Both the position numbers and the translations under genes were made by a program. Below are positions 135 through 17,696 of a stretch of 28,425 bases of DNA, in pieces. Each line of letters starts with the position of its first letter. The stretch's first letter is position 1. Origin of the DNA: a virus; IMG/VR virus record IMGVR_UViG_3300047277_000288, positions 1 to 28,425 of that record; one strand, given 5' to 3'. The notes under the pieces were generated by a model, which saw nothing but the letters and a program-made list of their open reading frames with translations, was not told the origin of the DNA and did not search any database.

Positions 135-230
135 TTGGCACCTCTTTAGTTTTTTGTTTTGGTTGACGGAAACTATACCATCTAACCTTTTTAGGTAGTG
201 GTGCATTTATTATATGAATTCGGGAAGTTA
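1..230 (-). mobile_element. End of an IS30-family insertion sequence
   Basis: This segment holds the transposase start (134) and about 100 bp upstream of it, where the inverted repeat of the element must lie. The phage reading frame that follows opens only inside this segment (GTG at 198), so the element has cut into that gene. The exact junction cannot be set without the other end; somewhere between about 190 and 235 is my estimate. No target duplication can be checked because the far side is outside the window. Confidence 0.7.
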
Positions 231-2222
231 AAACAAATTGAAGATAGTGATTACACCCAGCAAGGGCTAGATAGTGCCGCCGAACACCAAGCGCTATTAG
301 ATGCTGATAACGCAGGGCGTCTTGCAACTACGGGCCACAGAGAGCCTGCTAGAAAATTAGCCGATCAACGCAAAGCTATGCAGGAATCAGCCACAGCACT
401 AGGGGAAGCAGTAAGGCAAGAAGACATGCAGCCGCATCATGATAGCTTAAGCCGCCTTAATGAAATGCTCGCTAAGGATGATGAGGCAAGAGCTGCGCAT
501 AGTGAAATATCAAGGCTTGAACAACAACATTTATTAGATAATGGATTTATTCAGCATCCAGAAGTTAAGCCTCGCTATGAAGCAGCGCTACAAGATGAGG
601 TTCAATCAGCAACTAATAATAATATCCAGCCATTAGGCGCAGATAATCCAGCGCCTACGCAAACCCTTGATGCTTTGGTTGAGCAGCCTGCAAAAGTTGA
701 GGCAGTTCAAGAATCGCCAACTATGGATATGGGCGAGCAGGGCTTTACCTCAGAGACTACGCAAGACATTAATGCCAAAGACACCGCAGCACTGGCGGAT
801 AGCAACGAATTTGGTGATAAATCCGATATTGCTATGGGCATGCCTACTTTTAAAGGCAATAAAAGAACCGTGCTGGGCATGGCGGTTAATGCCCTAAAAA
901 CCCTAATAAATCGCCATGATATAACCCACATTGATGATTGGTTTGCCGGTGGCGGCATGTGGTCAACGTCGCTGGCTAACGCCATCCTGCCCAATGTTAA
1001 AAGCATTCGCTTGGGCGAGCTAAACCCGCTGCGCATCAAGCGCATCGAGTGGATGCATGAACGCGGCGATAAGCTGTTTGAAGATATGCAAAGCTCCGGG
1101 GCGCTGGAGGTTTATCGAAAACTGCTGGAGGAATTTAAAAACAATAAGGACACCGACGGCAGCGCCAAGCCTATCGTGTCGCCATCACCCTTCGATAAAA
1201 TAGGCCTTGAGCTGGCAGGCTTTGGCACGGGTAAAGGGGTAAATTTCAACCGTATGTTTACCTCAGGTGCAGACAAGCTCCCCGAACAGGGCAAGGTCTT
1301 GTTATCAGCACTGGGCGACTTGGCTTTTAATAATCGCGGTGTAAAAATCCATGAAGCCTCCACTATGACTTTGCCCGATGGCACAGTAGCGGACAAGTTT
1401 TTAGCAAAAGCCATCACCGAAATGGCCGCAGCACATAAGCAAGCCCAAGCCTTTAAAAGCCGAGGCGGCAAATATGAGTATATGCCAGCAGGCAGTAGTT
1501 TTGACAGCGTTGGCAGCAAGGTCATCAAAGGCAAGCATGTGCTGTCACTGGCTGATCCACCCTATTACAACACCACCGGTTATAAAGGCGCTGGCGATTT
1601 TGCCACGGGGGATAAATGGAACGCCAACGGTTATGCCGCCAGCCATGATTTACTGCAAACACTGGTGGCAAATGATAACCACATCTTATACACTGATGAA
1701 GCTTGGTGGCTTAAAGCTGAGCAAATGGCGGACAAGCACGCTGCTGGAGTCACCTTAACCAAAATAAACAATATGCTGAGCGATCTGCATGTTGCACCAC
1801 AACAAATAGGTAATCGTTATGAGCAACTCGGCATCCACAACCCAAGCCACGTTTCAGGGCAGACTGATAGCAGCGGCCTTAGTGGCAAAATTTACGCGGG
1901 AACAGCTGGAAAAGGAACTGACGGACGAGGAAGTGGGGACGATTCTGGACGTGCCACAGGACCAATGGCCGAAGGAACTGGAGAGCAAGGTAGAGTCGCT
2001 GCTAAATTATTAGAATCCCCAGAAATAACCTCAGCGCGTGAGGCTCTATCCAGCATGGATGCCTCACGTCAGATTGAAATACCTAATGATGATGGCACGG
2101 TAGATACAGGCACAGCCTCTGAGCTTATGGCAAGGGCTGATGAAGATATGGCTTTTGCTGAACAATCCGAAGCGGCGACAACGTCAGCGATTAGTTGCTT
2201 CTTAAAGTTTGGTGGCTTATGA
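198..2222 (+). CDS. C-terminal part of a virion polyvalent protein with a D12-class DNA adenine methyltransferase domain; 5' end removed by IS30
   Basis: The frame spans 674 codons but its first residues come from the IS end, so the natural N-terminus is missing. An acidic, coiled-coil-like region (about 1-210) precedes a methyltransferase domain. That domain has a SAM-binding motif DWFAGGGMW near 246-254 and the catalytic motif DPPY near 452-455 (LADPPYYNTTGY), as in Dam/D12 N6-adenine methylases. A Gly/Ser-rich linker (about 548-600) leads to a C-terminal tail, SELMARADEDMAFAEQ then CFLKFGGL, of a kind found at the ends of phage polyvalent proteins. Such proteins are packaged in the capsid and injected with the DNA, often to counter restriction. 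The position upstream of an internal virion protein fits this. Loss of the N-terminus by IS insertion may have inactivated it. Function is inferred from motifs. Confidence 0.8.
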   Translation: MVHLLYEFGKLKQIEDSDYTQQGLDSAAEHQALLDADNAGRLATTGHREPARKLADQRKAMQESATALGEAVRQEDMQPHHDSLSRLNEMLAKDDEARAAHSEISRLEQQHLLDNGFIQHPEVKPRYEAALQDEVQSATNNNIQPLGADNPAPTQTLDALVEQPAKVEAVQESPTMDMGEQGFTSETTQDINAKDTAALADSNEFGDKSDIAMGMPTFKGNKRTVLGMAVNALKTLINRHDITHIDDWFAGGGMWSTSLANAILPNVKSIRLGELNPLRIKRIEWMHERGDKLFEDMQSSGALEVYRKLLEEFKNNKDTDGSAKPIVSPSPFDKIGLELAGFGTGKGVNFNRMFTSGADKLPEQGKVLLSALGDLAFNNRGVKIHEASTMTLPDGTVADKFLAKAITEMAAAHKQAQAFKSRGGKYEYMPAGSSFDSVGSKVIKGKHVLSLADPPYYNTTGYKGAGDFATGDKWNANGYAASHDLLQTLVANDNHILYTDEAWWLKAEQMADKHAAGVTLTKINNMLSDLHVAPQQIGNRYEQLGIHNPSHVSGQTDSSGLSGKIYAGTAGKGTDGRGSGDDSGRATGPMAEGTGEQGRVAAKLLESPEITSAREALSSMDASRQIEIPNDDGTVDTGTASELMARADEDMAFAEQSEAATTSAISCFLKFGGL

Positions 2223-5476: not shown

Positions 5477-5511
5477 AAATCTCGTGGCTTGAATCTAAGC
5501 TGCGAGATTTT
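5476..5511. terminator. Bidirectional intrinsic terminator between endolysin and rep
   Basis: AAAATCTCG (5476-5484) pairs with CGAGATTTT (5503-5511). T-rich stretches lie on the 3' side in both directions. It separates the converging late operon and rep gene, and the rep stop codon lies inside the right arm. Confidence 0.8.
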
Positions 5512-6256
5512 ACTTTAGCGCCTCTTTTAGTTTAGACAGCCTGGCTTTTGCTTCTGTCTTAATTTCATTAGTACCGCCACTTTTATCTTTATAATCAAAT
5601 GAAAACTTTATTGATGTTATTTTTTTGCCCGTTTTAAGCACCTCGTAATTTGCGACAATATCTGAGCATTTAGAAATTTCTAAAATAGCAGGATCTATAA
5701 CCTTTTGCCTGACATTTGCAAATGCGGGGTACTTATCACTAATCTCTAGCTTGTCTTTAAGTTGAGCTATTGAAATAACGACCGATCTCTTTACTTTCCA
5801 TTGCATCAGCATTTCATAAATGCGAATCGAAAAAACTGATTTCATATCACTGATATGAACTAATTGGTATTTAGTAAATCGACCTTTTAGGTTTGACAGA
5901 AAGGGCGCAATGTCTTGAGAAAATCTAAGTCCAATGCTTTTATTAGGTAGCTCAGTAGTCTTCTTGGAAATCCACCTAAAATCCTCAATAGCCCCAGAAT
6001 CAAGTATAACTTTTATACTGCGATCATAAAGAAGCCTAATGGCGGCTTTCATTTCTCTAATAGCAGCGTCTTCGCTCATGCCGAAGGCGCATGAATACTC
6101 ACTTGCTGAAATTATAAAAATAATATTTTCATTTAATTTCTCTAATGAGTTTATTTGACTTATCGACATTAAGACAATTCTTTGCTCTTTAAGTGTTAGC
6201 TTATAACTTGCCTCAATAATGCGATTATCTTTACAAATCAAGTTCTTATTAGGCAT
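5510..6256 (-). CDS. Plasmid replication initiator, Rep_3 (RepB) family
   Basis: The 248-residue product starts MPNKNLICKDNRIIEASYKL and continues TLKEQRIVLMSISQI. This IEASYxLTLxEQRIxL block is the hallmark of Rep_3 initiators such as those of iteron plasmids. The family has two winged-helix domains; the second appears near 130-220 (KSVFSIRIYEMLMQW). It binds iterons and recruits the host replisome. Iterons spaced 21 bp lie directly upstream of the start, and a partial inverted repeat between gene and iterons suggests autoregulation. Finding this gene among phage genes is the main evidence for an extrachromosomal prophage. The shine-dalgarno is weak. Confidence 0.92.
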   Translation of the reverse strand: MPNKNLICKDNRIIEASYKLTLKEQRIVLMSISQINSLEKLNENIIFIISASEYSCAFGMSEDAAIREMKAAIRLLYDRSIKVILDSGAIEDFRWISKKTTELPNKSIGLRFSQDIAPFLSNLKGRFTKYQLVHISDMKSVFSIRIYEMLMQWKVKRSVVISIAQLKDKLEISDKYPAFANVRQKVIDPAILEISKCSDIVANYEVLKTGKKITSIKFSFDYKDKSGGTNEIKTEAKARLSKLKEALK

Positions 6257-6900: not shown

Positions 6901-7698
6901 TTATTTTTTCGGATATTGCCGATCCTGATAAACCGCAATAACTTCTTTAAGCAAAACGATGTTATCAGCAAAGCGTAAATCAAAACTGTCGATTAAATCA
7001 ACCACGCGCTCTTTGTAATTATCATCCCTAACCATAAGAGTTGGTTCGGGTTCTAAATAGTGCGCTGGTGGCTCGTTATTAATCATCCCTATACATTCAT
7101 CAGCATTATCCACTTGAGCCACATTAGCGACCACATCGATCGTATAAACTGGCTTAGCTTCGTAGTCGATAACTTCTGTAATACCTTGGTCGATTGTATG
7201 CACGACTGTTTCTTGATAAATAACCCGCTTAACTTCTTCAACCGGTAAGTTTTTATTAACGATATTACGCAATATCTTCTTTGCGACAGCCGTATCCTCC
7301 AGTTGAGATAAAGCTAATAATGATTTTTGATAAACCTTAATGCTACCCATATCATCAATGCGCGTTTCTTCACAAAATCGACCAATACTCACTAAGTTAG
7401 TAATTTGACTTTGGCTACTCGCCACTAAGTGGCGTGTAGAAGTAAGCCAAGCTTTTATATACTGCCCAAATTCTTTATCACTTGGATAGCGCTTTCGCAG
7501 CTCCCAGAGCAATCTGGACTTTAATAGCCATGATTGCGACTCAATAGCTTCAATACGATCTATTATTTCGTCATTCGATAATGCACTAATACGGTCAAGA
7601 GAAAATATATTGAGCTCAGTTATGTAATTGTCATCATGACTTGTCGGATTAAGTGATGCTTTTCTAGCGGCTGTCTCAGCATAAGGTTTAATAGCCAC
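6901..7698 (-). CDS. Probable partition partner of ParA (ParB position), no family recognised
   Basis: The 265-residue protein starts at GTG 7698 inside the end of parA (11-bp overlap), with GAGG 8-11 bases upstream. After a polar N-terminus comes a helical region with LLKSRLLWELRKRYPSDKEF (about 57-76) and a possible helix-turn-helix (ASSQSQITNLVSIGRFCEET). The C-terminal third is acidic and poorly structured, ending in a short helix. No ParB nuclease motif is visible. ParA genes are nearly always followed by the centromere-binding partner, so that role is inferred from coupling alone. It also resembles host-killing-associated or DUF3102-like DNA-binding proteins in its helical pattern. Confidence 0.55.
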   Translation of the reverse strand: MAIKPYAETAARKASLNPTSHDDNYITELNIFSLDRISALSNDEIIDRIEAIESQSWLLKSRLLWELRKRYPSDKEFGQYIKAWLTSTRHLVASSQSQITNLVSIGRFCEETRIDDMGSIKVYQKSLLALSQLEDTAVAKKILRNIVNKNLPVEEVKRVIYQETVVHTIDQGITEVIDYEAKPVYTIDVVANVAQVDNADECIGMINNEPPAHYLEPEPTLMVRDDNYKERVVDLIDSFDLRFADNIVLLKEVIAVYQDRQYPKK

Positions 7699-8344
7699 TT
7701 AGTACCTCACTTACCATTTCGGCTATTTCCCGTCTTGAGCTTGCTTCTGAAACACTTGAGCCAGACATCTCAACGACACCCATGCCTTCGCTCATGCAAT
7801 CTCTAAAGACCTTGCGATCATGAATCACAGACTTAACTAATTGAATGTCAGTGAATGGTTCAAAGTAAGCTACTGTAGCCGCTAATTCTTTCGCATTAGG
7901 CGTAGTTGGCGCAATAGACAATACTGCATAAGCTTTTAGCTTTTCGTTGATCCAGTGCGATTTTTTGATGACCGATACCATTTCTTCGGTAGTATCTAAG
8001 TCTGGTTGGCTAGGACGAAACGGCATTAACAGAATATCGGCGACTAATAACGCTGACTGCATTTCTTCAGACAGGTGGCCTCCGACATCGACTAGAACAT
8101 ATTCATAGCGATGACTGAAGTCTTTAATCGTTTTATTGATTGCGCCATAGCGTTGGGCGCAATGAATAACGGGAAGATCTAAAGTGTTTAGCTCTCGCTC
8201 TTGAATCCATTTTGATGATGTTGGCTGTCTATCAGCGTCGACGATTAAAACATCTTTGCCTTGCTGTGCTAGATAAGCTGCAAAATTACACGTTATTGAT
8301 GACTTCCCAACTCCGCCTTTTTGATTGGCGCACAAAATTATCAT
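7688..8344 (-). CDS. parA: ParA-type partition ATPase
   Basis: The 218-residue P-loop ATPase begins with the deviant Walker A box NQKGGVGKSS (7-16) carrying the signature lysine K9. It also has DADRQPTSSKW (about 36-46) and a Walker B-like segment YVLVDVGGH. It lacks an N-terminal DNA-binding domain, which matches short type Ib ParA proteins. Such proteins coat the nucleoid and move plasmid copies apart when bound to the partner-centromere complex. The ATG at 8344 has AGGGG at good spacing. It heads a leftward operon with the two genes that follow. Confidence 0.92.
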   Translation of the reverse strand: MIILCANQKGGVGKSSITCNFAAYLAQQGKDVLIVDADRQPTSSKWIQERELNTLDLPVIHCAQRYGAINKTIKDFSHRYEYVLVDVGGHLSEEMQSALLVADILLMPFRPSQPDLDTTEEMVSVIKKSHWINEKLKAYAVLSIAPTTPNAKELAATVAYFEPFTDIQLVKSVIHDRKVFRDCMSEGMGVVEMSGSSVSEASSRREIAEMVSEVLSGY

Positions 8345-8479: not shown

Positions 8480-8508
8480 AAGCGTAACGAATTGACCTAT
8501 TTACGCTT
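8480..8508. repeat. Inverted repeat AAGCGTAA-N13-TTACGCTT upstream of parA, centromere candidate
   Basis: Perfect 8-bp arms lie at 8480-8487 and 8501-8508, with a further TTACGCT at 8381-8387 and a smaller inverted repeat GATAA...TTATC at 8463-8479. The right arm contains the stop codon of the antirepressor gene. No T-run follows, so a terminator is unlikely. Position 136-164 bp upstream of the parA start fits a partition or parA operator site. Confidence 0.4.
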
Positions 8509-9430
8509 CAAGTCTAGCTAGGAGATCGGCTTTCTTTAGAACAATATGCTCATCTTCAATTAGATCAACAATAAATTGTTCTTGAGTCTTAACTTGCTCA
8601 TTATCGTTAAGCTCCCGAAGAGCCAGATGATCCTGATGAACTCTGACTAAATAATCTTGGGTGGGATTATCGTTTTTGCCATTGAAGATAACATTAATAA
8701 CCCGTGTACCACCATTTAAGCTTATCGTAATGGTGTCCTCTGAAATAACCTGCTTAGGCATAACCTCACCAGAGACGCTTTTAATTCTCTCTGCTACAAG
8801 ATCTTCTAGTTGTTCAGGGGTAAATGACAGCGTGAACGGTTCAGCAGGAATGGCTGACTTTTTCAGGGGCAGTAATTTCATGCCTAAAAGTCGTGCGGCT
8901 TCTTCAAGCTTATTGGCAGGGATGTTTTTATAAGTGGTGATGCCGTAATGATCATAGGTTTTTCGATAAAGCACGGCGTAACTTTTGCTGTCACTTTTGC
9001 AATAAGCTTCAATAGACTTTTTAAACTGTGTGGCTTCGGATTCTGAGATGTAAAGAGACGGGGGGAGTTCTTTTAGTCCGGGTTGGGGCTTTGTTTGATG
9101 ATCCAGAATATCAAGAACCCACTTACGGAATTCTTTAGCGATTGCAGTTCTTGAGAACATTCCAACTAAATGACATCCTCGTGAGCTAAAAATACGTTGC
9201 TCACGCTGTAGGCCGCTAGATTCGCCCAGACCGTCAATTTGACCGTCTCGCAAAATGATAGACATATCATCATTAAACTCTTCTTTATTTCTATCGAAAA
9301 TTTTTGACACTGAGTCTGAACTCGCATATCCAAGGCACTTGGCAAGTTCGACAGATGTTAACCAGATTTGGTTATTGTGATTAACTGGAGTTAGATTGAT
9401 ATTGTTAAAGCTTAGTGCTAATGAAGTCAT
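8501..9430 (-). CDS. Phage antirepressor with N-terminal BRO/Ant domain
   Basis: From ATG 9430 the protein has 309 residues. The N-terminal BRO domain runs from about 8 to 110: IWLTSVELAKCLGYASSDSV, then SSRGCHLVGMFSRTAIAKEF and RKWVLDIL, typical of Ant/BRO proteins that oppose repressors. The C-terminal half has a helical region (SEATQFKKSIEAYC) and an acidic tail of unknown family. A TTG seven codons upstream is rejected because AGAGGA sits ideally before 9430. The region upstream carries a C4-like antisense RNA and its target sites, including the ribosome site itself, as for ant of P1. Expression should therefore be under antisense control. Confidence 0.85.
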   Translation of the reverse strand: MTSLALSFNNINLTPVNHNNQIWLTSVELAKCLGYASSDSVSKIFDRNKEEFNDDMSIILRDGQIDGLGESSGLQREQRIFSSRGCHLVGMFSRTAIAKEFRKWVLDILDHQTKPQPGLKELPPSLYISESEATQFKKSIEAYCKSDSKSYAVLYRKTYDHYGITTYKNIPANKLEEAARLLGMKLLPLKKSAIPAEPFTLSFTPEQLEDLVAERIKSVSGEVMPKQVISEDTITISLNGGTRVINVIFNGKNDNPTQDYLVRVHQDHLALRELNDNEQVKTQEQFIVDLIEDEHIVLKKADLLARLEA

Positions 9431-9439
9431 GATTTTATT

Positions 9440-9490
9440 CCTCTGTAACAAGTCTTAAACCTGCCACCAAAGAGACCAATCTATGGTGGC
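9440..9490 (-). promoter_or_regulatory. C4 target a2/b2 at the antirepressor ribosome-binding site
   Basis: On the reverse strand TTGGTCT (9479-9473) is shown in the loop of a 7-bp hairpin (GCCACCA 9490-9484 with TGGTGGC 9469-9463). ACAGAGG (9446-9440) holds the Shine-Dalgarno of the gene starting at 9430. These two segments can pair with AGACCAA and CCUUUGU of the C4-like RNA (one G-U pair), in the right antiparallel order. Confidence 0.7.
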
Positions 9491-9498
9491 AAGATGAA

Positions 9499-9548
9499 CG
9501 AGGTTGGTCTACCGTACAAAGGGAACGGCCAGTCTTGCGACTGCCTCG
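9499..9548 (-). ncRNA. c4: C4-like antisense RNA controlling the antirepressor
   Basis: The reverse strand folds into an outer stem CGAGG/CCTCG (9548-9544 with 9503-9499) that encloses two hairpins: CAGTC-loop-GACTG (9543-9530) and CCGT-loop-ACGG (9528-9512). The second loop holds CCUUUGU (b'), and the strand after it holds AGACCAA (a', 9510-9504). Complements of both occur in matching order upstream (a1/b1, 9637-9618) and downstream at the antirepressor ribosome site (a2/b2). P1, P7 and related phages use C4 RNA of this build to block ant expression. The 5' and 3' ends of the RNA are approximate. A weak TATTAT about 25 bp before the stem could serve as its own -10. Confidence 0.78.
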
Positions 9549-9586
9549 CTCACCCTGCCATAATATGGGGGTAAAGCGATGGACAT

Positions 9587-9637
9587 AAAAAAACCGCAAA
9601 TAGCGGCGTTTCTTACGCCTTTGTTCCGAGAGACCAA
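9587..9637 (-). terminator. Attenuator with C4 target a1/b1
   Basis: Reverse-strand order: TTGGTCT (a1, 9637-9631), ACAAAGG (b1, 9624-9618), hairpin GGCG/CGCC (9619-9616 with 9608-9605), then terminator CCGC-loop-GCGG (9606-9603 with 9597-9594) followed by seven T. The two hairpins share 9605-9606 and exclude each other, and b1 overlaps the first by two bases. Pairing of C4 RNA with b1 would break the first hairpin and let the terminator form. It also ends readthrough from the early operon. Confidence 0.65.
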
Positions 9638-9642
9638 TCCCG

Positions 9643-9696
9643 TGTAGTTATGTAACTACAGGGCATAGCATACTCGAAACATTTGGGGGTTGTCAA
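9643..9696 (-). promoter_or_regulatory. Leftward promoter with palindromic operator for the antirepressor region
   Basis: On the reverse strand TTGACA (9696-9691) and TATGCT (9672-9667) are 18 bp apart, a good sigma70 promoter. Just downstream lies the palindrome TGTAGTTA-TG-TAACTACA (9643-9660), placed to act as an operator at or near the transcription start. Its binder is unknown; it does not resemble the TATACG-type operators at 15.6 and 19.1 kb. Confidence 0.6.
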
Positions 9697-15800: not shown

Positions 15801-16115
15801 ATGTATACCATTATTGAAACCGCCATTTTTGAAAAATATGCCGCTGATGCTTGGGAAGCTGACGAGCTAGAGGCTTTTAAAGTATGGCTTGCGCTACATC
15901 CTTATGCGGGTGATGTCATTCCTAAGTCGGGCGGTTGCCGTAAGGTGCGTTGGTCGGCTACTGGCAAGGGCAAGCGAGGTGGGGCACGAGTCATTTATTT
16001 TAATCGGTTAGATAATGGCGTTATTGTGCTGCTGATTGTTTACACCAAAACCAAGTTTGATAATTTACCCACTGAGTTTTTAAAACAATTAAAAGAGGTC
16101 GCAGAGCATGGATAA
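15801..16115 (+). CDS. higB: HigB/RelE-superfamily toxin
   Basis: A 104-residue small basic protein: MYTIIETAIFEKYAADAWEA, then GCRKVRWSATGKGKRGGARV (about 49-68) and IYFNRLDNGVIVLLIVYTKT. The K-x-R...GKRGGxRVIY block is the core of HigB-type mRNA interferases of the RelE fold, which cut mRNA on the ribosome. AGGAG stands 13-17 bases before ATG 15801. Its stop overlaps the antitoxin start by 8 bp, with the toxin first, the usual higBA order. Confidence 0.88.
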   Translation: MYTIIETAIFEKYAADAWEADELEAFKVWLALHPYAGDVIPKSGGCRKVRWSATGKGKRGGARVIYFNRLDNGVIVLLIVYTKTKFDNLPTEFLKQLKEVAEHG

Positions 16116-16473
16116 CGAAATGATGCAGTTTTGTAACGATTTACTGGAGTCTGTTCGACAAATGAAGTCGGGGGAAAGTGCCAGAAAAACTGAGTTAGTT
16201 GCTCTTTCTGATGGCCGATTAAGACGATTGATAACGCGTGCGGATGGAACTATTGAACAGGATGATATATTGCCTATTATTGTGTCGACAAGATTACGCA
16301 CAGGCCTAACACAGGTTCAGTTTTCCCAGTTGTTAGGCGTATCAGTACGTACATTGCAAGGTTGGGAGCAAGGGCGTAAGCAACCATCAGGCGCAGCTAA
16401 AACCTTGTTAAAGATCGCCCAGCAACAACCTGATTTGTTAAAGTCGCTGGCTAATGATCAAGTAGCGGCTTGA
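16108..16473 (+). CDS. higA: HigA-type antitoxin with XRE helix-turn-helix
   Basis: The 121-residue protein has a C-terminal XRE domain (about 65-105): TRLRTGLTQVQFSQLLGVSV then RTLQGWEQGRKQPSG. The WEQGRxxPSGAAxxLL pattern is that of HigA antitoxins partnered with RelE-fold toxins. The N-terminal part (1-45) is expected to wrap the toxin. HigA proteins also repress their own operon. Coupled to the toxin by overlap. Confidence 0.9.
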   Translation: MDNEMMQFCNDLLESVRQMKSGESARKTELVALSDGRLRRLITRADGTIEQDDILPIIVSTRLRTGLTQVQFSQLLGVSVRTLQGWEQGRKQPSGAAKTLLKIAQQQPDLLKSLANDQVAA

Positions 16474-16536: not shown

Positions 16537-16950
16537 ATGCTTGATTACCCTGTTATTTTGACCCCTGACCAAGGGGCTATATTGGTGACATTCCCTGATG
16601 TGCCAGAAGCCATTACCTTTGGCGCAACTATTGATGAAGCATTATTGCACGCTGTTGACGCGCTAGAGACAGGCTTGTCTTTTTATGTTGAGGCGCGTAA
16701 ACCTCTGCCAGAAGCTTCTGTTCGTCCTGAGTTGCCCACGGTTAGACCCTCTGTGCTTGAGGGCGTTAAGTTAGCGATCTATCGAGAAATGACCCTGCAA
16801 GGCATCCGTAAAGCCGACCTTGCTAGACGCTTAGGCTGGAAAGCGCCACAAGTCGACCGCTTATTTGATCTTAGCCACGCCTCTAGGCTAGATCAATTAG
16901 AGGCGGCAGCCAAAGCACTAGGTCGTCATATTAATTTGACCTTAGCTTAA
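16537..16950 (+). CDS. HicB-family antitoxin without an adjacent HicA
   Basis: The 137-residue protein has the HicB partial RNase H-like fold at the N-terminus (MLDYPVILTPDQGAILVTFP, DVPEAITFGATIDEALLHAV). A C-terminal XRE-like helix-turn-helix follows (GIRKADLARRLGWKAPQVDR, LFDLSHASRLDQLEAAAKAL). HicB normally neutralises HicA encoded just upstream, but the 63 bp between higA and this gene cannot hold one. It may be a lone antitoxin or regulator that guards against a related HicA. GGA lies 8-10 bases before the ATG. Confidence 0.85.
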   Translation: MLDYPVILTPDQGAILVTFPDVPEAITFGATIDEALLHAVDALETGLSFYVEARKPLPEASVRPELPTVRPSVLEGVKLAIYREMTLQGIRKADLARRLGWKAPQVDRLFDLSHASRLDQLEAAAKALGRHINLTLA

Positions 16951-17044: not shown

Positions 17045-17293
17045 ATGAGCAAAGCCAATAAACTATTAGAACAGATGCGTAATAATCCCCGTGACTGGCG
17101 GATTGATGACGTTAAAACCGTAGCCGAACATTTTTTAGTGGATTGGCGTAGCGCGGGGGGTAGCCATCATGTCTTTGGTATTGCTGGGATTGCTAAAAAA
17201 GTCTGCGTACCGGCGCATCGGCCTATTAAACCCGCGTATATTCGTCAATTTGTACTGCTGATTGATAAAGTTAAGGAATTAAACCATGAGTGA
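17045..17293 (+). CDS. hicA: HicA toxin
   Basis: From ATG 17045 the protein has 82 residues: MSKANKLLEQMRNNPRDWRI, DDVKTVAEHFLVDWRSAGGS, then HHVFG and PAHRPIKPAYIRQFV. The catalytic histidine of this double-stranded-RNA-binding-like mRNA interferase lies in GGSHHVF. A start six codons upstream would add MQYYIS, which is not typical of the family. No good Shine-Dalgarno is seen. The stop overlaps the antitoxin start by 8 bp. Confidence 0.88.
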   Translation: MSKANKLLEQMRNNPRDWRIDDVKTVAEHFLVDWRSAGGSHHVFGIAGIAKKVCVPAHRPIKPAYIRQFVLLIDKVKELNHE

Positions 17294-17696
17294 ATTTGTC
17301 ATTAAGGCTATTAAACCGCCTTATGCGTTTGAGGCTTACGCCCATATTATTGAGCCCATTCCTGAAAATGAGGGCGGCGGATTCTTAATAAGCTTTCCTG
17401 ACTTACCGGGCTGTATGGCGGATGGCGCTACCGAAGCCGAAGCGCTTGAGATGGGGCGTGAGGCGTTTTTAAGTTGGGTATCTGCGGTGGCTGATATGGG
17501 TGATGCTATTCCTAAGCCTGTATTCACGACAGCCTTAGCACTTCCATTACCTTCATCAGGAAAGTTTGTGCAGCGCGTGCCTAAGTCCATTCACGCGCAA
17601 TTAGTCGCTAAAGCTAAGCAAGAGGGTGTTAGTTTAAATAGCCTGGTATTGTCTTTTATTGCTGATGGACTTGGTAGGCTAGATTTTAGGCCATAA
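17286..17696 (+). CDS. hicB: HicB antitoxin with C-terminal ribbon-helix-helix
   Basis: The 136-residue protein has the HicB fold in residues about 15-65 (GGGFLISFPDLPGCMADGAT, EAEALEMGREAFLSW). A C-terminal DNA-binding ribbon-helix-helix follows (FVQRVPKSIHAQLVAKAKQE, GVSLNSLVLSFIADGL). It pairs with the HicA just upstream and should repress the hicAB promoter. It differs from the lone HicB at 16537, which carries a helix-turn-helix instead. Confidence 0.9.
   Translation: MSEFVIKAIKPPYAFEAYAHIIEPIPENEGGGFLISFPDLPGCMADGATEAEALEMGREAFLSWVSAVADMGDAIPKPVFTTALALPLPSSGKFVQRVPKSIHAQLVAKAKQEGVSLNSLVLSFIADGLGRLDFRP

What the first reader, a model, noticed from the sequence alone, without database searches (positions are those of the whole stretch)
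9440..9696. C4-type antisense RNA circuit controlling the antirepressor
Seen: two short segments of a folded RNA (AGACCAA and CCUUUGU on the reverse strand, 9510-9504 and 9523-9517) have complements in the right antiparallel order at two places: perfect ones at 9637-9618, upstream of an attenuator, and at 9479-9440, where the second segment is the Shine-Dalgarno of the antirepressor (one G-U pair). The RNA has an outer stem and two hairpins. Known: P1/P7 use C4 RNA with a'/b' and a/b segments to silence ant. Inference: here C4 pairing both promotes termination (the antiterminator hairpin at 9605-9619 and the terminator at 9594-9606 exclude each other) and blocks translation. A P1-like immunity circuit in a podovirus-type element would be notable.
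Basis: partly seen in the sequence, partly recalled or inferred. Interest (0 to 1): 0.85.

Follow-up and report, generated by a model that had tools for sequence, protein, structure and literature searches.

The report
P1-type C4 antisense immunity switch
A probable phage-plasmid carries the same kind of small antisense RNA switch that phage P1 uses to keep its antirepressor gene off during lysogeny; it is a sound new example of a well-known and widespread system, not a new kind of system.

Summary
Rfam finds a C4 antisense RNA at 9565-9482(-) (69.4 bits, cut-off 45), upstream of a Bro-N antirepressor gene (9430-8501). Both C4 recognition segments have complements at two places, in a leader ahead of an intrinsic terminator and at the antirepressor's Shine-Dalgarno; chance of all four about 1e-9. 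Across 30 C4 loci under 80% identical, these segments covary with both targets (0 of 1000 permutations reach the observed pairing, for each of the four targets).

The system is known. P1's own GenBank record annotates a1, b1, c4, a2, b2 in this order; Rfam has a c4-a1b1 family; N15, Gifsy-1, APSE-1/2 and TL-2011b carry C4 too (the last two podoviruses, from memory), so a podovirus-type element is no novelty.

The added value is the attenuator. In 27 of 27 testable leaders, P1 included, a nascent antiterminator hairpin overlaps both the end of b1 and the terminator's 5' arm (shuffles: mean 1.4, maximum 6). C4-driven termination, hence C4 autoregulation, is well supported by comparison but unproven; for Gifsy-1 it has been suggested in print.

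The parts
9667..9696 (-). putative sigma-70 promoter: -35 TTGACA (9696-9691), 18-nt spacer, -10 TATGCT (9672-9667)
   Evidence: sequence; a TTGACA-like promoter sits at the same place in relatives; not tested
9638..9662 (-). 5' leader hairpin (place of hairpin 1 of the isrK/SeqA type)
   Evidence: fold of the leader; sub-threshold isrK match 9659-9587
9631..9637 (-). a1, first target of C4 (UUGGUCU)
   Evidence: perfect complement of a'; covaries with a' across loci
9618..9624 (-). b1, first target of C4 (ACAAAGG)
   Evidence: perfect complement of b'; covaries with b' across loci
9605..9619 (-). antiterminator hairpin GGCGU-AAGAA-ACGCC, overlapping the last 2 nt of b1 and the 5' arm of the terminator
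   Evidence: -6.1 kcal/mol alone; equivalent hairpin in all testable leaders
9587..9607 (-). intrinsic terminator: stem CCGC/GCGG plus seven U
   Evidence: fold with a1 and b1 blocked
9482..9565 (-). C4 antisense RNA; mature 5' end expected at 9559 (GGC, RNase P site by analogy with P1)
   Evidence: Rfam RF01695, 69.4 bits; own covariance model, 78.9 bits (the window is one of its 14 seed sequences); processing site inferred from PMC5320573
9516..9522 (-). b' segment of C4 (CCUUUGU), in the loop of hairpin 2
   Evidence: unpaired probability 0.65-1.0
9504..9510 (-). a' segment of C4 (AGACCAA), in the single-stranded junction
   Evidence: unpaired probability 1.0
9473..9479 (-). a2, second target of C4 (UUGGUCU), just 3' of C4
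   Evidence: perfect complement of a'; covaries
9460..9468 (-). GGUGGCAGG, a copy of the C4 5' arm that can pair with the C4 3' arm and put a2 in a loop; function unknown
   Evidence: 10-bp run in the window; weak covariation in relatives
9440..9446 (-). b2, second target of C4 (ACAGAGG), contains the ant Shine-Dalgarno
   Evidence: complement of b' with one G-U; b2 covaries across loci
8501..9430 (-). ant, Bro-N antirepressor, 309 aa, ATG start
   Evidence: PHROG anti-repressor 1e-40; Pfam Bro-N 1.9e-10

Best explanation
This is a P1-type (immI-like) secondary immunity circuit. One promoter makes a transcript that runs through a leader (a1, b1, attenuator), the C4 RNA and the antirepressor gene. 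C4 is cut out of the read-through transcript. Its a' and b' segments pair with a2 and with b2, which is the Shine-Dalgarno of ant, and stop antirepressor synthesis in the lysogen. The same segments pair with a1 and b1 on new transcripts. Pairing at b1 takes the bases that start the antiterminator hairpin, so the terminator forms; since the terminator lies upstream of C4, C4 also limits its own synthesis. When the element enters a naive cell there is no C4, transcripts read through, and Ant is made until C4 builds up. Shown here by sequence and comparison: C4 identity, the four paired segments, their covariation, and the conserved antiterminator overlapping b1. Inferred from P1: processing and translational block. 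Inferred only: the effect of C4 on termination and the autoregulation. The stated confidence is for the C4 circuit acting on ant; for the termination step alone I would say 0.5 to 0.6.
For: C4 match over the cut-off. ant is a Bro-N antirepressor. The P1 record annotates putative a1, putative b1, c4, a2, b2 in the same order, with a2/b2 noted as repressing icd ant translation. a'/b' covary with both targets over 30 distinct loci, 0 of 1000 permutations for each target. 27 of 27 leaders have a nascent hairpin overlapping both b1 and the terminator 5' arm; the same topology at equal or better stability appears in shuffles only 1.4 times on average, maximum 6. There are 19 different arm pairs (one row mis-picked), and both leaders left out also show a nascent hairpin at b1. 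RNase P processing and b' occluding the ribosome-binding site are established for P1/P7 (PMC5320573).
Against: No transcript data for this element. The antiterminator is weaker than the terminator (-6.1 against -7.8 alone; means -7.0 and -9.6), so it must act kinetically. By minimum free energy the whole window leader ends in the terminator with or without a1/b1 blocked. The hairpin topology alone, without the stability condition, is common in shuffles (mean 16.9 of 27). b2 itself looks largely sequestered in the predicted 5' UTR fold.
Confidence: 0.9

Rival explanations
1. The terminated leader RNA (IsrK-like, carrying a1/b1) is mainly a decoy that binds C4 in trans and relieves ant. C4 then acts only by translational block at a2/b2, and pairing at a1/b1 does not change termination.
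For: [quoted passage not shown] Gifsy-1 has a C4 RNA over the cut-off upstream of STM2616. a1 and b1 covary with C4 as this also requires.
Against: It does not explain why the antiterminator 5' arm overlaps the end of b1 in 27 of 27 leaders. The window leader only weakly resembles IsrK (31.9 bits, cut-off 50). The two readings can both be true.
Confidence: 0.25
2. The leader complements are relics: only a2/b2 at the Shine-Dalgarno is functional, as in the textbook P1 model, and the terminator is constitutive.
For: The P1 record calls a1 and b1 'putative' but not a2 and b2. Translational repression by C4 is the only step established for P1/P7 in the papers read.
Against: a1 and b1 stay complementary to C4 across diverse loci and change together with a' and b', which selection must maintain.
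Confidence: 0.08
3. Chance pairing or a decayed module.
For: Nothing beyond the absence of a C4 match in 46 records related by terminase, most of them fragments.
Against: C4 model score, intact ant reading frame, and chance of about 1e-9 for the four complements.
Confidence: 0.01

Closest known systems
Phage P1 immI operon (c4-icd-ant); P7 by literature
   Same: Order a1, b1, c4, a2, b2; one transcript; b2 next to the start codon; terminator-like hairpin and antiterminator between b1 and c4
   Different: No icd gene here: ant follows directly. Different a' and b' sequences, so a different immunity specificity is expected. P1's antirepressor is the Ant1/Ant2 pair; here it is a single Bro-N protein.
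Phage-plasmid N15 immA (C4-type RNA upstream of the ant genes)
   Same: C4 over the cut-off (78.8 bits), a1/b1, antiterminator, terminator, a2/b2; also an extrachromosomal prophage
   Different: N15 is a linear plasmid with a protelomerase; the window has Rep3 and ParA. In N15 the ant gene is separated from C4 by other genes.
Salmonella prophage Gifsy-1 isrK / STnc1160 / orf45 / anrP
   Same: Leader with terminator, C4 (69 bits) and same target layout; modulation of termination by the downstream RNA suggested in PMC4825925
   Different: Gifsy-1 has orf45 before anrP; the window leader scores below the isrK cut-off
APSE-1 and APSE-2 (phages of Hamiltonella)
   Same: isrK-type leader, C4 and Bro-N antirepressor in the same order; ant N-terminal domain 51% identical for APSE-1
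   Different: Different a'/b' specificity; rest of the genomes not compared in full
P4 CI RNA / seqA-seqC immunity
   Same: Processed RNA pairs with sites upstream and downstream of itself and causes termination (as cited in PMC4825925)
   Different: P4 controls replication genes, not an antirepressor; not tested here

Membership tests
C4 antisense RNA (RF01695) | Covariance model score above the gathering threshold, full length | tested here: met
   69.4 bits against 45, model positions 1-87 of 87
C4 antisense RNA (RF01695) | Exposed a' and b' segments complementary to the controlled mRNA | tested here: met
C4 antisense RNA (RF01695) | Processed from a longer transcript by RNase P | not testable with these tools
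   GG at the expected 5' cut (9559), followed by C rather than U or A; two Acinetobacter C4 RNAs also show GGC (PMC5320573)
P1-type immI circuit | C4 and antirepressor in one transcript, C4 upstream | tested here: met
   Order and spacing in sequence; co-transcription itself not shown
P1-type immI circuit | a2/b2 at the ribosome-binding site downstream of C4 | tested here: met
   P1 annotation
P1-type immI circuit | a1/b1 in the leader upstream of C4 | tested here: met
P1-type immI circuit | icd between C4 and ant | tested here: not met
   ant starts at 9430, directly after b2; the same holds in APSE-1/2 and others. Absence of icd is common among C4 loci and does not define C4, so the claim made is 'C4-type circuit', not 'P1 immI operon'.
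P1-type immI circuit | C4 represses antirepressor synthesis | not testable with these tools
   Inference from P1
isrK (RF01394) | Score above the gathering threshold | tested here: not met
   31.9 bits against 50, E 2.6e-5 in a 381-base search
c4-a1b1 (RF03163) | Score above the gathering threshold | tested here: not met
   Not among matches up to E = 1, though where related families of one clan overlap only the best is listed; it does match L006 and APSE-1

The most novel reading that the evidence does not exclude
C4-type immunity loci in general, P1 included, carry a riboregulated attenuator upstream of C4: C4 pairing at b1 destroys an antiterminator, so C4 terminates its own transcription and times antirepressor synthesis on infection. 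If so, the textbook P1 model, translational repression alone, is incomplete.
Probability: 0.5. Interest if true: 0.55.

Novelty: new member of a known kind. Interest (0 to 1): 0.32.

Why it matters
As a locus it adds one more immunity specificity to a known family. Its use is that following it up exposed a conserved antiterminator overlapping b1 in P1, N15, Gifsy-1, APSE and others. That makes the role of the putative a1/b1 sites, annotated in P1 but unproven in what could be read here, directly testable in standard laboratory phages.

Tried and rejected
Podovirus novelty: rejected. Filing the leader under isrK or c4-a1b1: rejected, below threshold. A conserved spacer hairpin between a2 and b2: no signal, mean z -0.2. 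The alternative hairpin between the C4 3' arm and the copy at 9468-9460: seen, but own pairing only slightly beats swapped arms (mean 7.5 against 6.9 bp), so no function is claimed. Near DNA relatives of the window in the phage and plasmid collections: none. C4 in 46 terminase relatives: none found, though most are fragments and the tool warns that nothing rang in its controls either. SPN1S, epsilon15, F116 and PfDIW6: no C4. Alignment A2 had two rows on the wrong strand and was redone as A3. Automatic terminator picking failed for L017 and L021, left out L023 and L246, and mis-picked L252; recheck these. The original P1 papers (Citron and Schuster 1992, Heinrich 1994) are not held, so what was proven about a1/b1 there could not be checked.

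Full report
What is there. On the minus strand, reading 5' to 3': a TTGACA/TATGCT promoter (9696-9667, 18-nt spacer), a leader with a hairpin, a1 (9637-9631) and b1 (9624-9618), an antiterminator hairpin (9619-9605) sharing bases with an intrinsic terminator (9607-9587), the C4 RNA (9565-9482), a2 (9479-9473), b2 containing the Shine-Dalgarno (9446-9440), and a 309-aa antirepressor gene (ATG at 9430, end 8501).

Is it C4? Rfam RF01695 matches over its whole length at 69.4 bits, cut-off 45, E 8.9e-12; it is the only Rfam hit over threshold in the 28-kb window. The isolated RNA folds into the C4 shape at -41.3 kcal/mol. In the context of the following 85 nt, a' is unpaired with probability 1.0 at every base and b' with 0.65-1.0. 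In shuffled flanks the four complements have separate probabilities of 0.0072, 0.0024, 0.0053 and 0.012 (b2 allowing one G-U), product 1.1e-9.

Does it covary? Relatives came from searches with the antirepressor and with the a1 sequence (107 stretches; of the 80 fetched loci nearly all have a C4). A covariance model from 14 of these C4 sequences, the window among them, found 106 C4 matches in two searches, reduced to 30 loci less than 80% identical. For each of the four target sites, each locus's own a' or b' pairs better than segments dealt from other loci, with 0 of 1000 permutations reaching the observed sum (earlier set of 19 loci). Examples of a': AGACCAA here, GUUCCAA, AGGUCAA, GUCUCAA, UUCCUAC, CUGUCAA (P1), each with matching a1 and a2. 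Loci share ancestry, so the permutation count is not a strict probability. Some of the loci were found by an a1 pattern and share the window's a' type, which tends to weaken the a' test rather than strengthen it.

The attenuator. I folded each leader up to, but without, the 3' arm of its terminator. In 27 of 27 leaders a hairpin forms that overlaps both the end of b1 and the 5' arm of the terminator. When the segment from b1 to the terminator is shuffled, the same topology at equal or better stability appears in 1.4 loci on average, maximum 6; topology alone appears in 16.9. So it is the stability, not the topology, that is unusual. The 27 leaders show 19 arm pairs, from AACGC/GCGUU and CGCA/UGCG to UGCGG/CCGCA in P1; the overlap with b1 is mostly 2 nt (where the L252 row is a mis-picked terminator; searches show its b1-overlapping hairpin). 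The two leaders left out also form a hairpin next to or over b1 in nascent folds. The window antiterminator (-6.1) is weaker than the terminator (-7.8), so control would have to be kinetic, and minimum-energy folding of the full leader gives the terminator in either case. Since the terminator lies upstream of C4, C4-driven termination would mean C4 autoregulation.

What is known. P1's record annotates putative a1 (48255-48261), putative b1 (48269-48276), C4 (48343-48419), a2 (48423-48429) and b2 (48452-48459). Weinberg et al. 2010 list C4 and c4-a1b1 as motifs (PMC2864571). C4 is cut at its 5' end by RNase P and b' occludes ribosome-binding sites (reviewed in PMC5320573). For Gifsy-1, Hershko-Shalev et al. 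2016 suggest that STnc1160, a stable RNA downstream of IsrK and very likely its C4 (my inference), may modulate termination at the IsrK terminator as P4 CI RNA does; they also show short IsrK acting in trans (PMC4825925). From memory and not verified here, N15 work by Ravin and colleagues also reported premature termination in this region.

The element. It encodes Rep3, ParA, Erf, helicase, primase, NinB, terminase subunits, endolysin and a virion protein. The virion protein is about 36% identical to that of SPN1S, Tyrion and vB_EcoP_ZX5 and the terminase about 48-52% to TL-2011b, ZX5 and PfDIW6, so a podovirus-like phage-plasmid is likely; SPN1S is classed as Uetakevirus in its record. Terminase relatives at up to 98% identity exist in IMG/VR but show no C4; the three closest contigs are only 6-9 kb. 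TL-2011b does have C4 beside a Bro-N gene, as do APSE-1/2. The C4-ant module therefore looks exchangeable between phages.

Verdict. Confirmed, well supported, and a new member of a known kind. Interest is modest for the locus; the conserved b1-overlapping antiterminator is the part worth testing.

Noticed in passing
window 5510-6256 (-), 7688-8344 (-): Rep3 replication initiator and ParA next to phage genes: the element is probably a phage-plasmid. Rep3 is about 40% identical to Acinetobacter RepM.
   Followed up: partly
window 198-2222 (+): 674-aa reading frame between phage genes with no PHROGs, Pfam or PADLOC match.
   Followed up: no
window 15801-16473 (+): Adjacent RelE-like (below the Pfam cut-off) and HTH genes, possibly a toxin-antitoxin pair; HicB-like proteins follow at 16537-16950 and 17286-17696.
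   Followed up: no
L220, L235, L236, L240, L277: IMG/VR contigs with two C4 RNAs on opposite strands 2.6-2.9 kb apart, with different b' segments (CCUUUGU and CCACUUAG types), so perhaps two immunity specificities in one prophage.
   Followed up: partly
window 8501-9430 (-), C-terminal half: Relatives of the antirepressor match mostly the N-terminal Bro-N part; in both the phage and plasmid collections no place covers 80% of the protein.
   Followed up: no
L122, L123, L124: Three short IMG/VR contigs with terminase 98% identical to the window's but a small terminase subunit only 57-58% identical beside it, a sharp mosaic boundary.
   Followed up: no
L036 upstream of 822: A C4-ant module whose leader (a1, b1, terminator) is replaced by unrelated sequence; C4, a2 and b2 are intact.
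   Followed up: no
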